34,623 nt of DNA from Campylobacteraceae bacterium. GTDB taxonomy: Bacteria; Campylobacterota; Campylobacteria; Campylobacterales; Sulfurovaceae. Under the pieces are notes generated by a model that was not told the DNA's origin, searched no databases, and worked only from the letters and a program-made list of their open reading frames with translations. The position numbers and the translations under genes were made by a program. Position 1 is the first letter of the stretch, and each line of letters opens with the position of its first letter. This document shows positions 5,940 to 9,736 of this stretch, piece after piece. Where the stretch lies: positions 1 through 34,623 of the forward strand of contig JALWKP010000155.1 of the NCBI GenBank assembly GCA_027081355.1, given 5' to 3'.

Positions 5940-6104
5940 AAGCTTAGAGCTAAGAGCTAATTGTGCGGCTTCATTCGAAAAACGGAAAGCTGAAAACAGA
6001 AAACGGATAAATTCTGTTGTCTGTTTTCCGTTATCCGTTTTCAGTATGCGAAGCCACCTTATTAGCTTTATGCTTTAGGCTTTTAGCTTTATGCTTTTGC
6101 ATAA
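5940..6104 (-). repeat. Stop-adjacent word repeat with long inverted repeat (tract 1)
   Basis: This fills the gap between hemL and the HAD phosphatase gene. Next to the phosphatase stop, read on the minus strand, are repeated words of the type AAAGCTAA / AAAGCATAA; they run into the last codons of the gene. The centre is an inverted repeat: GAAAACGGATAA (5999-6010) pairs with TTATCCGTTTTC (6031-6042), and GGCTTC (5967-5972) with GAAGCC (6050-6055). The hemL side carries roughly complementary words. The whole unit could fold as one long imperfect hairpin. Confidence 0.75.
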
Positions 6105-6724
6105 TTATACAAAAAAAACTCTTCTATCTCTTTTGCAAGCTGCATTGGAGAGTTTAAAAGTTTTAAATTTCCTGTGCTAAATGCTACGCGTATAAATTTA
6201 ACTCTTGCTGCTTTGGCTGCCAGTTCGTCTCTGTCGCTGTCGCCGACAAAAACTGTGGTATTTGGAGTTTCACAGTTTCTTTGCATTAATTTAATCAGCA
6301 TTTCGGGCGATGGTTTGCCCTCTTTAACATCATCCCAGCAGATTATATCATCAAAATATCTGTCTATTTTTAAATGTTTTAATGCTTCAAGAGCTGAGTT
6401 TCTATAAGCATTTGTAGCAATTGCCAGTTTAATTTTTAAAGACTTCAACTCTTTTAGCATCTGCTCTATGCCGTCAAACAAAACAATCTCTCTATCGTGC
6501 ATAGCGCTGTAATACTCTTGAAACCACTTCTCATGTATTGGCTCTATCTTATCTATACCGTAAAAAAATTGTGCCAAATTGCAAGATGGGTTATTTATCT
6601 GTTCTAAAACGGTTTTAGAATCAAGCGGTTTTAAGCCAAGCTTGCCCCTGACATAATTTATTGCATTTGTCAAAACAACAGAGCTGTCAATCAGCGTGCC
6701 ATCCATATCAAAAATAGCCAGCAC
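6089..6724 (-). CDS. HAD-superfamily phosphatase, phosphoglycolate phosphatase-like
   Basis: This 211-residue protein is a HAD hydrolase with a helical cap between motifs I and II. Motif I is FDMDGTLID (5-13), the motif II threonine lies in ATNAYRNS, the motif III lysine in GKPSPEML, and motif IV is VGDSDRDELAA. The set resembles Gph/PhnX-type small-molecule phosphatases; the substrate is unknown. The start is a GTG that shares one base with the upstream stop (TAGTG), so translation is probably coupled to the PDC-sensor gene. The final residues, AKA, are encoded by the beginning of the repeat tract that follows. Confidence 0.85.
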   Translation of the reverse strand: MLAIFDMDGTLIDSSVVLTNAINYVRGKLGLKPLDSKTVLEQINNPSCNLAQFFYGIDKIEPIHEKWFQEYYSAMHDREIVLFDGIEQMLKELKSLKIKLAIATNAYRNSALEALKHLKIDRYFDDIICWDDVKEGKPSPEMLIKLMQRNCETPNTTVFVGDSDRDELAAKAARVKFIRVAFSTGNLKLLNSPMQLAKEIEEFFLYNYAKA

Positions 6725-7629
6725 TACTTTTTACTCCGGTTTAATGCAAATATATAAATAGCCAAACCGATAATCAAAGCAGTAATTGCTAAAATTAAGC
6801 CTCCGGCATAAAGCAGCTTAGAAGAGTCGATTATTGCAAATTTAAATACCAGCATAAGCGCTTCAATAGAAAGAGCAATAATAATAGAGCCCAAAAAGCG
6901 CACCATAGTTTTGTGTATATCACTCTCGTGCTGTTTTCTGTGCTCGCCTAAAACCTCTTCTTCAAAAAGCGCTTTAACCAAATCGAAAATTGCTAATGAG
7001 AGAGTCAGCAAAATTGTAGATTCAAAAACATTTTTAATATCCACCTCTTCTATATGAATTCCCATTGTAAAAAAGCTCACAACCCCTTTTATAAAAAGCA
7101 TTAAAGCCACAAAAAAAAGCGCAAAACTAAATGCAGCATAAATATATCTTGCAGCTTTTCCGCTTATAGATTCTATCGAAGAGCGGTTTACAATTTTCAA
7201 AATATTTTCCAGCGATACATCTACACATACAATATACATCAATCTGCCTTTTTCATCAAAAACCGGATATGCCGCAGTTACTACTAAAGAGTTGCTTTCT
7301 ATAGAAGGATACGGATCTGTTAAAACACACTTTTTATCTCTAATAACCCTGTAAAAATAAGCTCTTGAACTTCTGCTCTCGCCCGCTCCTTTGCGTGAAT
7401 ATTTAGGATTTAAACTGATAGTGTTTATAACCTGTTTTCCATTTGCATCTAAAATATATAAAGCTTCTACATATTTTATAGTTTTTGCTATGCCTTTTAA
7501 ACCGACTTTTAAATCTTTTAATTCAATACCCGGCACCCTGTTTGGAACGGAACGGCTGATTATATAACAAAAGTATGCTCTCGCTTTTGTTCTGATTAAT
7601 GAAAATTCATCAATCTCTTTAATTGTCAT
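6724..7629 (-). CDS. PDC/Cache sensor-like protein with C-terminal membrane spans
   Basis: This 301-residue protein has a PDC/Cache-like N-terminal region (about 20-145). It includes YILDANGKQV and YPVFDEKGRLMYIVCVDVSL, the strand pattern of small-ligand sensing domains. Four hydrophobic segments follow (about 160-188, 205-222, 245-267 and 272-295). There is no kinase, methyl-accepting or cyclase output domain, and no N-terminal membrane span precedes the sensor, which is unusual. Homologues next to psd in related genomes are, as I recall, labelled PDC-sensor or glycosylation-related proteins, but no activity is established. The start overlaps psd by 11 bases. Confidence 0.75.
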   Translation of the reverse strand: MTIKEIDEFSLIRTKARAYFCYIISRSVPNRVPGIELKDLKVGLKGIAKTIKYVEALYILDANGKQVINTISLNPKYSRKGAGESRSSRAYFYRVIRDKKCVLTDPYPSIESNSLVVTAAYPVFDEKGRLMYIVCVDVSLENILKIVNRSSIESISGKAARYIYAAFSFALFFVALMLFIKGVVSFFTMGIHIEEVDIKNVFESTILLTLSLAIFDLVKALFEEEVLGEHRKQHESDIHKTMVRFLGSIIIALSIEALMLVFKFAIIDSSKLLYAGGLILAITALIIGLAIYIFALNRSKK

Positions 7630-8440
7630 TAAGCTCTCCTATAACATCTCCGAAAGTTACTTTTTGATTTAAATTTACATTCCATTTTACAGCATCTTTT
7701 TGGCTTAAAATCACTATAGTAGAGCCCATTTCAAACCACCCCATAAGCTCCCCTTTTTTAAACTCTTTAGCTCTATCGTATTTAAAAAGAACCGGTTTAA
7801 CAGCATCGGAATTGGTTTTTAATTTCGGCTCAAATATTACAACCATTTTTCCGACATTAAGCGCCCCTACAAGCACAATAAAATGTTTATGGTTGAATCT
7901 GTCGATAACTTCTAAAATTACTCTTTCATTTTCTACATAAAGATTTTTTTTATTTTTTAAAAGCGGAATATTAACAGGAAAAAGCTTGCCCGGAATATGC
8001 AAAAGAGACAGCACTTTTAAATCAAACGGAAAGTGATACCTGTGGTAATCTTTGGGCGATAAGTAAAAATTAATAAACTCCCCGCCCTCTAAAACTTTAT
8101 AATTATTCCCAAATAACCCTAGCAGTTCATTGGTATTATACTTCATACCCTTAATTTGATACGCTTGATTATTTTCAATACGCCCAAAAGCTACAATCTG
8201 CGCATCGCAAGGAGATATTACAGAATTTACCCTTGCATCAATCACAGGCTCTTTTTCCAAAGCCCTGGTAAAAAGGGCTTCGAGCGAACTGTATTCTTCG
8301 GGTTTTTTAAATCTGCTCATATCAAGCCCCATAAGTTTAACATAAGCGCTGTTTATAATATTTTGGAAAGGTTTGGCAAACTTTTTTGTTGCAAATTTGC
8401 CAAAAGCATAAGAGAATGCAGAGCTAAAATGCCTACCCAT
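7619..8440 (-). CDS. psd: Phosphatidylserine decarboxylase proenzyme
   Basis: This enzyme converts phosphatidylserine to phosphatidylethanolamine at the inner membrane. The proenzyme cleaves itself at the G-S-T site to form the pyruvoyl cofactor; here this is G239-S240-T241 in EMGSTIVIL, near the C-terminus as usual. Catalytic D79 (SPCDA) and the histidines of DYHRYHFP (131-138) are present. I chose ATG 8440 (273 residues) because AAGGAG lies six bases upstream and the start overlaps the preceding stop by eight bases (ATGGGTAG). An in-frame ATG at 8467 would be deeper in the upstream gene and lacks that site. Confidence 0.95.
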   Translation of the reverse strand: MGRHFSSAFSYAFGKFATKKFAKPFQNIINSAYVKLMGLDMSRFKKPEEYSSLEALFTRALEKEPVIDARVNSVISPCDAQIVAFGRIENNQAYQIKGMKYNTNELLGLFGNNYKVLEGGEFINFYLSPKDYHRYHFPFDLKVLSLLHIPGKLFPVNIPLLKNKKNLYVENERVILEVIDRFNHKHFIVLVGALNVGKMVVIFEPKLKTNSDAVKPVLFKYDRAKEFKKGELMGWFEMGSTIVILSQKDAVKWNVNLNQKVTFGDVIGELNDN

Positions 8441-9272
8441 CAAGCTCCTTTTTTTCGTAATAAGCAAGGGCTTCTTTCATTAACTCTATATGATAACTCT
8501 CTTGGTTATTTATAAAATCAAAAAATCTTGCAAGCTCTTCAGTGTCTCTTCCTACCGCAGCAGACAAATCACGGCACATCTCTTTTGCTGCTGTCTCTTC
8601 TTCTATGCCGTCTTTTAAAAATTGAACCACATCTTCAATTTGATAAAGAGATTTATGCAAAGTTCTAGGAACAGCCAATATTCCCATTTCTGCCATCATA
8701 TTGCCAAAACTTTTCAAATGGAACATACTCTCATCAACCAAAATTTGAAAAATCTTATTTAAAAAATCATCATCAAAATGGGCTTTTAAATAATTGTAAA
8801 TCATAATAAGCTCATACTCTTTATAACTTTCATCAAATAAAAAGAGTGTAAACGCATCAACCGCCTCTTTACTCAAATTGTAATTTTTATATGTTCTATT
8901 CATATCAAATGCAGTAACTTTTTCATCATTTAAAATATTGACTCTAAATTTCATATAATCCCAGTCAGACTCCAACCTTATTCGAAGCTCTTCATTATCT
9001 ACCGAACTTAACATCAATTCCATATCTGTTAATCTTGTAGAAATATTGCTTAAAATAACTTTTAAACTATCAACTTTTATAGGCAGATTTCCCCTGTTGT
9101 AATCATAATCTTCGCCTCTTTTTATTAAATCTCTCTCTATCCAGGTAAGATTTCTAAACAAAATATCGCTAAAATCATTCAAGACCCTTTTTGACTCTGC
9201 ATTATTGCTCATAAAAGATGCCATTAATGTAACCAACCATACTTCGTGTGTTTTTACTAGCAGTTTTTGCAT
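8433..9272 (-). CDS. All-helical protein, possibly ferritin-like, coupled to a NifU-like gene
   Basis: I do not recognise this 279-residue protein with certainty. It has no signal peptide or membrane span and appears helical throughout. The C-terminal half has a pattern reminiscent of a ferritin-like diiron bundle: E148-E154 in one helix, DESMFH (180-185), EEETAAKE (224-231) and the ExxH of NQESYH (258-261). The second element has E and H four residues apart rather than three, so metal binding is not secure. It starts behind GGAGGAG and overlaps the NifU-like gene by 16 bases, which implies a joint role, perhaps in iron or Fe-S handling. Confidence 0.6.
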   Translation of the reverse strand: MQKLLVKTHEVWLVTLMASFMSNNAESKRVLNDFSDILFRNLTWIERDLIKRGEDYDYNRGNLPIKVDSLKVILSNISTRLTDMELMLSSVDNEELRIRLESDWDYMKFRVNILNDEKVTAFDMNRTYKNYNLSKEAVDAFTLFLFDESYKEYELIMIYNYLKAHFDDDFLNKIFQILVDESMFHLKSFGNMMAEMGILAVPRTLHKSLYQIEDVVQFLKDGIEEETAAKEMCRDLSAAVGRDTEELARFFDFINNQESYHIELMKEALAYYEKKELDG

Positions 9273-9736
9273 TGTTTCTCCTCCTGTGGCTCTATGCTAA
9301 ACTCTTTATCCGGCGAGCAGCTATGCCCGATTTTATAAATTAAAGTCTGTTTCTCCCCCTTCTCTTGACTTAAAAGATAGCCGTCTATTGCGGCTTTAAG
9401 AGCCACAGCAACCATTTCCGAACATGCTGCTTCTTCGGGCGGAACATTTTCTAACATTCCTAAAGTTACCGAAATCAGCTCTTCGCACTTGCTAAAAGTT
9501 ATATCTCTGGCTTCTTGCGTAATAATCGAGCCTGCAACTACGGTAGTCATACAGGCAATTGCTTCAAAAGCAATATCTGCAATTACATATTCTCCGCTGC
9601 AGTCTTTCTCTACGTCTATATATACTAAAACCTTTTCGCCGTTTTGCGGGTTTTCTCCTATTCCTATACTGTCTGCATCTTCTATTCTTCCGTAATTATT
9701 CGGATTAGACATATGCTGTATAATCTCTTTATCCAT
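9257..9736 (-). CDS. NifU/IscU-like iron-sulfur scaffold homologue lacking one usual cysteine
   Basis: This 159-residue protein resembles the IscU/NifU N-terminal scaffold: HMSNPNNYG at the N-terminus, GIGENPQNG (25-33), FEAIACMTTVVAGS (57-70) and CSEMVAVALKAAIDGY (105-120). Two of the three cluster cysteines are in place (C62, C105). The first, expected in ENPxCGD, is replaced by Q31/N32. An extra CKNC tail (156-159) ends the protein. The start at 9736 fits the family alignment. GTG at 9742, with AAAGGA seven bases upstream, is an alternative, and the frame is open to 9784 without a ribosome site. It heads an operon with the helical protein. Confidence 0.78.
   Translation of the reverse strand: MDKEIIQHMSNPNNYGRIEDADSIGIGENPQNGEKVLVYIDVEKDCSGEYVIADIAFEAIACMTTVVAGSIITQEARDITFSKCEELISVTLGMLENVPPEEAACSEMVAVALKAAIDGYLLSQEKGEKQTLIYKIGHSCSPDKEFSIEPQEEKQCKNC

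What the first reader, a model, noticed from the sequence alone, without database searches (positions are those of the whole stretch)
8433..9736. NifU-like scaffold missing a cluster cysteine, coupled to an uncharacterised helical protein
The scaffold homologue keeps C62 and C105 but has Q31/N32 where the first cysteine should be, and it gains a CKNC tail. Its partner gene overlaps it by 16 bases and codes for an all-helical protein with possible Glu/His metal positions. Together they may form an iron-storage or transfer pair distinct from normal Fe-S assembly.
Basis: partly seen in the sequence, partly recalled or inferred. Interest (0 to 1): 0.5.

Follow-up and report, generated by a model that had tools for sequence, protein, structure and literature searches.

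The report
Altered iron-sulfur scaffold with ferritin-like partner
Two overlapping genes of vent and sediment bacteria make an iron-sulfur scaffold protein whose metal-binding cysteines have been rearranged and a two-bundle ferritin-like iron protein; the genes stay together across much of the group and probably pass iron or electrons to each other.

Summary
The scaffold homologue (9257-9736, minus) lacks the first IscU/NifU cysteine (N32). In 105 distinct paired loci position 32 is never Cys, while C62, C105 and an unreported tail cysteine, C140, are Cys in 104 of 104 readable copies each; the CKNC tail is private to the window. The partner (8433-9272) is a tandem ferritin-like protein (AF2 pLDDT 94.6; profile match to solved 'Bacterioferritin' 9viw, E 6e-17); its second bundle keeps a six-residue diiron set. 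The genes are linked in 35 of 249 genomes of the class (35 of 44 that have the partner) and in 79 of 80 named loci. Best explanation (inferred): the diiron protein hands iron to a rewired scaffold, as YtfE does with IscU; an electron-transfer couple is the main rival. No intact U-type scaffold was found elsewhere in the genome: its three-domain NifU lost all three scaffold cysteines and the NifS beside it lost its PLP lysine and catalytic cysteine. Nitratiruptor has no class-V aminotransferase match at E <= 1e-10. New variant of a known kind.

The parts
9257..9736 (-). NifU-like scaffold gene, 159 aa, single NifU_N domain
   Evidence: ORF; NifU_N 52.4 bits; AF2 pLDDT 89.8 and Foldseek to IscU 7cnv_A E 4.4e-11
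8433..9272 (-). tandem ferritin-like protein gene, 279 aa
   Evidence: ORF; AF2 pLDDT 94.6; VIA; 9viw E 6e-17
9257..9272 (-). 16-base overlap of the two genes
   Evidence: sequence
9280..9285 (-). AGGAGG, 7 bases before the ATG of the ferritin-like gene, inside the NifU-like gene
   Evidence: read from the sequence
9641..9643 (-). codon N32, in place of the first scaffold Cys
   Evidence: profile alignment; never Cys in 105 loci
9635..9637 (-). codon E34, in place of the scaffold Asp
   Evidence: Glu in 102 of 102 readable
9551..9553 (-). codon C62, second scaffold Cys
   Evidence: 104 of 104 readable
9422..9424 (-). codon C105, third scaffold Cys
   Evidence: 104 of 104 readable
9317..9319 (-). 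codon C140, family-specific tail Cys
   Evidence: 104 of 104 readable
8817..8819 (-). codon E152, diiron ligand candidate (helix A of second bundle)
   Evidence: 106 of 106
8718..8732 (-). codons E181 to H185, diiron ligand candidates (helix B)
   Evidence: E181 and H185 106 of 106 each
8595..8597 (-). codon E226, diiron ligand candidate (helix C)
   Evidence: 106 of 106
8490..8501 (-). codons E258 to H261, diiron ligand candidates (helix D)
   Evidence: E258 105 of 106, H261 106 of 106
7619..8467 (-). phosphatidylserine decarboxylase gene, next downstream (neighbour, not part of the core pair)
   Evidence: PF02666 E 3.4e-53; a similar gene at this place in 67 of 92 loci

Best explanation
The pair is a conserved two-gene iron/iron-sulfur module of Campylobacterota. 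The ferritin-like protein binds a diiron centre in its C-terminal bundle. The NifU-like protein binds iron or a small Fe-S cluster with a rearranged ligand set (C62, C105, C140, perhaps E34) in place of the usual three Cys and Asp. They are translated together and work together: the diiron protein supplies iron, possibly after reacting with O2, H2O2 or NO, to the scaffold for Fe-S assembly or repair, much as RIC/YtfE supplies IscU. Shown here: linkage, fold (predicted, with a solved relative), residue conservation, absence of Cys1. Inferred: metal binding, C140 as a ligand, a physical complex, the direction of iron flow, repair as the purpose.
For: Linkage in 35 of 44 genomes with the partner and in 79 of 80 named loci; all 34 genomes with a strong NifU-like match also have the partner. 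Position 32 never Cys, C62/C105/C140 in 104 of 104 readable. Six diiron ligands kept, also in the distant relative L157. Ferritin-like fold and profile match to solved 9viw. Scaffold fold of IscU. Precedent: YtfE, a diiron protein, binds IscU and promotes its cluster (PMC8117158, abstract).
Against: No experiment. Coordinates of the models were not available, so the distance of C140 from C62/C105 is unmeasured. YtfE belongs to the hemerythrin-like class (PMC9268430 abstract, search listing), not to the ferritin-like one. Eight genomes have the partner without the NifU-like gene, and other NifU-like paralogues (L143-L149) occur without the partner. The genes do not sit with Fe-S machinery in the loci clustered; no Fur-box signal.
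Confidence: 0.4

Rival explanations
1. Electron-transfer couple: the NifU-like protein holds a stable [2Fe-2S] cluster and passes electrons to the diiron site, which works as a peroxidase or oxidase, like rubrerythrin with its redox module on a separate chain, or Bfd with bacterioferritin.
For: Diiron ligand set, sub-threshold Rubrerythrin match in 12 of 30 members, fixed pairing with a Cys-bearing protein. The rubrerythrin and Bfr/Bfd precedents are recalled.
Against: The partner is a scaffold fold, not a ferredoxin or rubredoxin; no Bfd domain in it.
Confidence: 0.27
2. Zinc-dependent or persulfide relay: the NifU-like protein works like SufU, moving sulfur, and the ferritin-like protein is a co-regulated neighbour.
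For: All 30 members match the SufU model TIGR01994; Cys62/105 kept.
Against: Cys1 is missing in all readable copies; in seven Nitratifractor-like genomes the NifS beside NifU is degenerate, so the usual sulfur donor is gone there; strict pairing with a diiron protein is unexplained.
Confidence: 0.1
3. Iron storage pair: the ferritin-like protein stores iron and the NifU-like protein loads or empties it.
For: Bacterioferritin and Dps are among the nearest folds; the solved relative is named 'Bacterioferritin'.
Against: Two bundles in one chain, one with a full ligand set; nothing here shows cage assembly, and it was not tested.
Confidence: 0.07
4. The NifU-like protein binds no metal and is a structural or regulatory subunit of the ferritin-like protein.
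For: Scaffold Cys have been lost wholly in other NifU-like proteins of the class that stay intact as ORFs (L143-L146; NifU of 13 genomes).
Against: Three cysteines and E34 are fixed in the paired family, which a structural role does not explain.
Confidence: 0.1

Closest known systems
IscU / NifU N-terminal (U-type) Fe-S scaffold (PF01592; TIGR03419, TIGR01999, TIGR02000)
   Same: Fold and sequence family; second and third scaffold Cys kept
   Different: First Cys absent, Asp replaced by Glu, extra invariant C140; score far below the curated cut-offs of the equivalog models
RIC/YtfE with IscU
   Same: Proposed working: a four-helix diiron protein that gives iron to a U-type scaffold (PMC8117158 abstract)
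   Different: YtfE is hemerythrin-like (PMC9268430 abstract in listing); here the fold is ferritin-like, tandem, and the gene is fused in translation to its own scaffold gene
Bacterioferritin-Bfd and rubrerythrin
   Same: Ferritin-like diiron protein working with an Fe-S or Fe-Cys module (recalled)
   Different: No Bfd-like or rubredoxin domain found in either protein; two bundles in one chain with one full ligand set
PDB 9viw 'Bacterioferritin' (306 aa)
   Same: Full-length relative of the ferritin-like protein, E 6e-17; in the printed alignment the positions of E181, H185, E258 and H261 carry the same residues
   Different: Organism and neighbours not known to me; linkage to a NifU-like gene not testable here

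Membership tests
U-type Fe-S scaffold (IscU/NifU_N) | NifU_N profile match above the curated cut-off | tested here: met
   52.4 bits, cut-off 22
U-type Fe-S scaffold (IscU/NifU_N) | IscU fold | tested here: met
   AF2 model, Foldseek 7cnv_A E 4.4e-11
U-type Fe-S scaffold (IscU/NifU_N) | three scaffold Cys plus Asp (recalled) | tested here: not met
   Cys1 absent and Asp replaced by Glu in all readable copies of 105 loci
U-type Fe-S scaffold (IscU/NifU_N) | curated NCBIfam equivalog cut-off (NifU_clost, IscU, NifU_proper, SufU) | tested here: not met
   window protein 64.2 bits against 187.9 for the best model
U-type Fe-S scaffold (IscU/NifU_N) | binds and transfers an Fe-S cluster | not testable with these tools
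   needs purified protein
ferritin-like diiron superfamily | four-helix bundle of ferritin type | tested here: met
   AF2 pLDDT 94.6, VIA Z 13.3-14.8 in the 50 rows shown, profile to 9viw E 6e-17; Foldseek alone gave no E below 0.001
ferritin-like diiron superfamily | Glu/Glu-His/Glu/Glu-His ligand set (recalled) | tested here: met
   E152, E181+H185, E226, E258+H261; spacing in helix B is ExxxH; geometry not measured
Rubrerythrin (PF02915) | profile match above the cut-off | tested here: not met
   18.2 bits, cut-off 22.8, for the window protein
Rubrerythrin (PF02915) | C-terminal rubredoxin Cys4 domain (recalled) | tested here: not met
   the protein has one Cys, C233 (translation)
Bacterioferritin-Bfd couple | partner with a Bfd-type [2Fe-2S] domain | tested here: not met
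   only NifU_N matched above its cut-off in the partner; the alignment with NifU ends before its Bfd domain
RIC/YtfE | hemerythrin-like fold | tested here: inconclusive
   no hemerythrin among the rows shown, but only Foldseek's top chains were aligned

The most novel reading that the evidence does not exclude
In Nitratifractor- and Nitratiruptor-type bacteria Fe-S biogenesis runs without any cysteine desulfurase: the NIF pair has become a pair of pseudo-enzymes or has gone, SufBCD uses environmental sulfide, and the rewired scaffold plus ferritin-like protein is a dedicated route that combines delivered iron with free sulfide. The loss of Cys1 and gain of C140 would then mark a scaffold re-engineered for sulfide instead of persulfide.
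Probability: 0.15. Interest if true: 0.85.

Novelty: new variant of a known kind. Interest (0 to 1): 0.55.

Why it matters
It gives a natural scaffold in which one cluster cysteine is missing and another, elsewhere in the chain, is fixed, together with its own iron-protein partner. That makes the open question of who donates iron to Fe-S scaffolds testable with two small genes. It also points to free-living bacteria, including the cultured Nitratifractor salsuginis and Nitratiruptor sp. SB155-2, in which no working cysteine desulfurase could be found.

Tried and rejected
Fur-type regulation: the best match to a Fur box near 108 NifU-like starts was no better than shuffled sequence (mean 11.24 against 11.21).

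A link to denitrification or to SUF: strong over 249 genomes (Cytochrom_D1, the NirS-type family, 26 of 35 paired against 11 of 214 unpaired; SUF 19 of 35 against 17 of 214) but not significant within families f1, f7 or f8, where numbers are small (p 0.15 to 1.0), so probably ancestry.

C140 as a remnant of the Bfd domain of NifU: the profile alignment ends at residue 126 and gives no support.

Internal duplication of the ferritin-like protein: hhalign of the two halves gives probability 0.2%. The two bundles are seen in the model, not in the sequence.

Co-evolution by distance matrices: r 0.86 over 105 loci, 0.63 among 83 close ones; not corrected for species history, so not used.

Phage or plasmid carriage: no relative in viral contigs or, for the ferritin-like protein, in the plasmid collection.

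Wider spread: the one genome-contig scan found 263 relatives and kept the best 80. Of these 79 bear Campylobacterota-type names and one (L111) only 'bacterium'. The other 183 were not seen, so presence in other phyla is not excluded.

Papers: 10 searches, PMC open-licence papers only. Searches were the ones aimed at the pair and showed no paper on it. One search found no paper holding three of Nitratifractor, Nitratiruptor, desulfurase, SufS. The N. salsuginis genome paper has no occurrence of nif, iron-sulfur, ferritin, rubrerythrin or desulfurase.

Full report
WHAT IS THERE. On the minus strand a NifU/IscU-like gene (9257-9736) overlaps a second gene (8433-9272) by 16 bases. The second gene has AGGAGG 7 bases before its ATG, inside the first gene. 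The first protein matches NifU_N at 52.4 bits (cut-off 22); the second gives only a sub-threshold Rubrerythrin match (18.2 bits, cut-off 22.8).

THE CYSTEINES. Profile alignment with intact three-domain NifU of the class puts N32 opposite Cys1, E34 opposite the Asp, C62 opposite Cys2 and C105 opposite Cys3. I gathered 113 paired loci; after dropping 8 whose ferritin-like protein repeats another's, 105 remain. Position 32 is N in 85, T in 15, S in 2, unreadable in 3, never C. C62, C105 and C140 are Cys in 104 of 104 readable copies each; the unreadable ones come from L062 and L160, whose NifU-like ORFs are broken or cut short. E34 is Glu in 102 of 102. C140 stands in a weakly conserved stretch: the commonest residue reaches 26-63% at 137-139 and 30-60% at 141-145. 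Six loci have a Cys elsewhere within about residues 18-46, never at 32. The window's CKNC tail is private. So the family lacks one scaffold Cys and has another fixed in its tail. Whether C140 reaches the old site is not known, since no coordinates were available; AF2 (pLDDT 89.8, pTM 0.82) puts a short strand, 132-135, before it, with mean pLDDT 89 for residues 131-140 and 48 just after.

THE PARTNER. AF2 gives a confident model (pLDDT 94.6, pTM 0.91) of two helical bundles. VIA-align 2 matches residues 1-118 to a bacterioferritin chain (9h1u_B, Z 14.6, rmsd 2.2, 117 residues) and roughly 125-279 to bacterioferritin, Dps and ferritin chains (rows shown: Z 13.3-14.8). The tool warns that helical bundles can reach such Z without kinship, and Foldseek gave no E below 0.001, though the rows it lists are ferritins, Dps, bacterioferritins and a manganese catalase. 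The independent support is sequence: a profile of 30 members matches the solved chain 9viw ('Bacterioferritin', 306 aa) at E 6e-17 over positions 8-269. In 106 sequences (those of the paired loci plus L106, whose neighbour is cut off by the contig end) E152, E181, H185, E226 and H261 are invariant and E258 is 105 of 106. The distant relative L157 keeps exactly these six while losing E148, E154 and E225; the seven f4 sequences have Asp at 181. The first bundle is degenerate by comparison: position 38 is Glu in 7 of 106, and position 41 is His in 105, the window's N41 being the exception.

LINKAGE. A search of 249 genomes of the class found the ferritin-like gene in 44. All 30 loci fetched at once have the NifU-like gene directly upstream. 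Of the other 14, four fetched later have it (one, L160, truncated), one has it by coordinates (G031), eight lack it in the stretch fetched (seven of family f4, among them Nautilia profundicola, and one of f10), and one (G149, E 2.6e-4) was not recovered by the profile and is probably chance. So 35 of 44. Conversely all 34 genomes with a NifU-like match above 160 bits have the ferritin-like gene. Weaker NifU-like paralogues (54-105 bits, seven fetched as L143-L149) have none nearby. In a scan of named genome contigs the best 80 of 263 relatives were kept; 79 have the NifU-like gene abutting or overlapping and the 80th (L106) is cut by the contig end. The two sets share some genomes, so they are not independent. 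NifU-like lies upstream on the same strand in 104 of 105 by ORF start; the exception, L059, has an over-long ORF start.

CONTEXT. In 67 of 92 loci examined the next gene downstream belongs to one cluster whose representative resembles the window's psd, often followed by Cache-like and HAD-like genes (families of the window's own genes). Many loci end close to the pair and those of other families were mostly fetched with short flanks, so how general this is remains open. The pair is absent from f2 and f3, apart from the doubtful G149; that these are the Helicobacter- and Campylobacter-type families is my inference.

IS THERE ANOTHER SCAFFOLD? G000 has two NifU_N proteins: this one and a three-domain NifU at G000:C156. 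At the aligned positions that NifU has G, E and F in place of the three scaffold Cys (a Cys lies two residues before the first), and has lost three of four Cys of the Bfd-like domain, while keeping the CxxC of its last domain. The NifS beside it, a relative of the epsilon NifS model at 235 bits (cut-off 588), has Ala for the PLP Lys and Phe for the catalytic Cys. With other replacements, all seven genomes of the two Nitratifractor-like genera that I aligned (G000, G208, G096, G238, G058, G003, G131) lack the three scaffold Cys, the PLP Lys and the catalytic Cys; the Bfd-domain Cys are lost only in the first three. In the same alignments 38 NifU keep all eleven residues checked and 38 NifS keep Lys, His and Cys; 30 of each came in as the best NifU_N matches of the class, so they are not a random sample. 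The degenerate genes are intact ORFs. dN/dS could be estimated for 1 of 8 NifU and 4 of 8 NifS comparisons, at 0.10-0.19, against 0.02-0.06 in 4 of 6 for intact ones; dS is near saturation in several. This fits purifying selection on pseudo-enzymes. A second group, f6 g12 (6 of 6 aligned), lacks the scaffold Cys too, within 2 kb of sufB/D matches; the one searched, G008, has a strong class-V aminotransferase there (E 3.9e-122). Nitratiruptor SB155-2 (G036) and G013 give matches only to the last NifU domain, one NifU_N match each of the strength of the variant, and no class-V aminotransferase match at E <= 1e-10. N. salsuginis has one at that threshold, the degenerate NifS. G000 has a second, a transaminase closest to BhcA and PhnW-type models, and three weaker matches (18-29 bits) that I did not identify; G000 is 95.6% complete. 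SUF is present: PF01458 in 36 of 249 genomes, these included. In G000 sufB, an ABC gene, sufD, sufE and a DUF59 gene stand in a row without a sufS; in G036 and G013 sufB, an ABC gene, sufD and a DUF59 gene, read by eye. How they obtain sulfur is unknown. Sulfide can replace IscS in E. coli, and this needs IscU (PMC13015791, abstract).

HOW IT MAY WORK. A diiron protein fixed beside a cysteine-bearing scaffold suggests passing iron or electrons. The nearest worked example is YtfE, a diiron protein that binds IscU and promotes its cluster (PMC8117158, abstract). I take iron donation to the altered scaffold as most likely (0.4), an electron-transfer couple next (0.27). The pair also occurs in genomes with intact NifU and NifS (G219, G221, G225, G139), so it is an addition to the main machinery, not simply its replacement. 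Links to NirS-type genes or SUF are strong overall but not significant within families.

VERDICT. The function is inferred. The side finding on lost cysteine desulfurase may matter more than the pair itself.

Noticed in passing
L230:6039-8164 (G000:C156:6039-8164): The genome's NifS and three-domain NifU are intact ORFs that have lost the PLP Lys, the catalytic Cys and all three scaffold Cys; the same in seven of seven Nitratifractor-like genomes aligned, with low dN/dS where measurable.
   Followed up: yes
G036 and G013 (Nitratiruptor SB155-2 by length, and a relative): No class-V aminotransferase match at E <= 1e-10, hence no cysteine desulfurase found, although SufB/SufD are present.
   Followed up: partly
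L245-L250 (G187, G008, G030, G127, G237, G106): A second group of three-domain NifU without scaffold Cys but with the Bfd and last-domain Cys, encoded within 2 kb of suf genes.
   Followed up: partly
L143:5828-6370, L144:6468-7004, L145:2773-3306, L146:5465-6058: NifU-like paralogues that lack all three scaffold Cys but keep a Cys at the C140 position, in a CPYSxxxC-like tail; no ferritin-like gene nearby.
   Followed up: partly
L150-L156 (family f4, includes Nautilia profundicola): The ferritin-like gene occurs without the NifU-like gene, with Asp for E181; in the three loci viewed it follows a gene that looks like pdxA by eye.
   Followed up: partly
window 6089-8467: psd, a Cache-like membrane protein and a HAD hydrolase lie downstream of the pair on the same strand, an order shared by many loci.
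   Followed up: partly
window 9150-9152: The window's ferritin-like protein has Asn at position 41, where the other 105 of 106 sequences have His.
   Followed up: no
L251 (G145:C1:52938-53756): The three-domain NifU of G145 is a pseudogene with seven stops inside the match, while the same genome keeps the NifU-like/ferritin-like pair.
   Followed up: no
L148:5423-5905 (G225): Another short NifU-like gene stands beside what look by eye like anaerobic ribonucleotide reductase genes.
   Followed up: no
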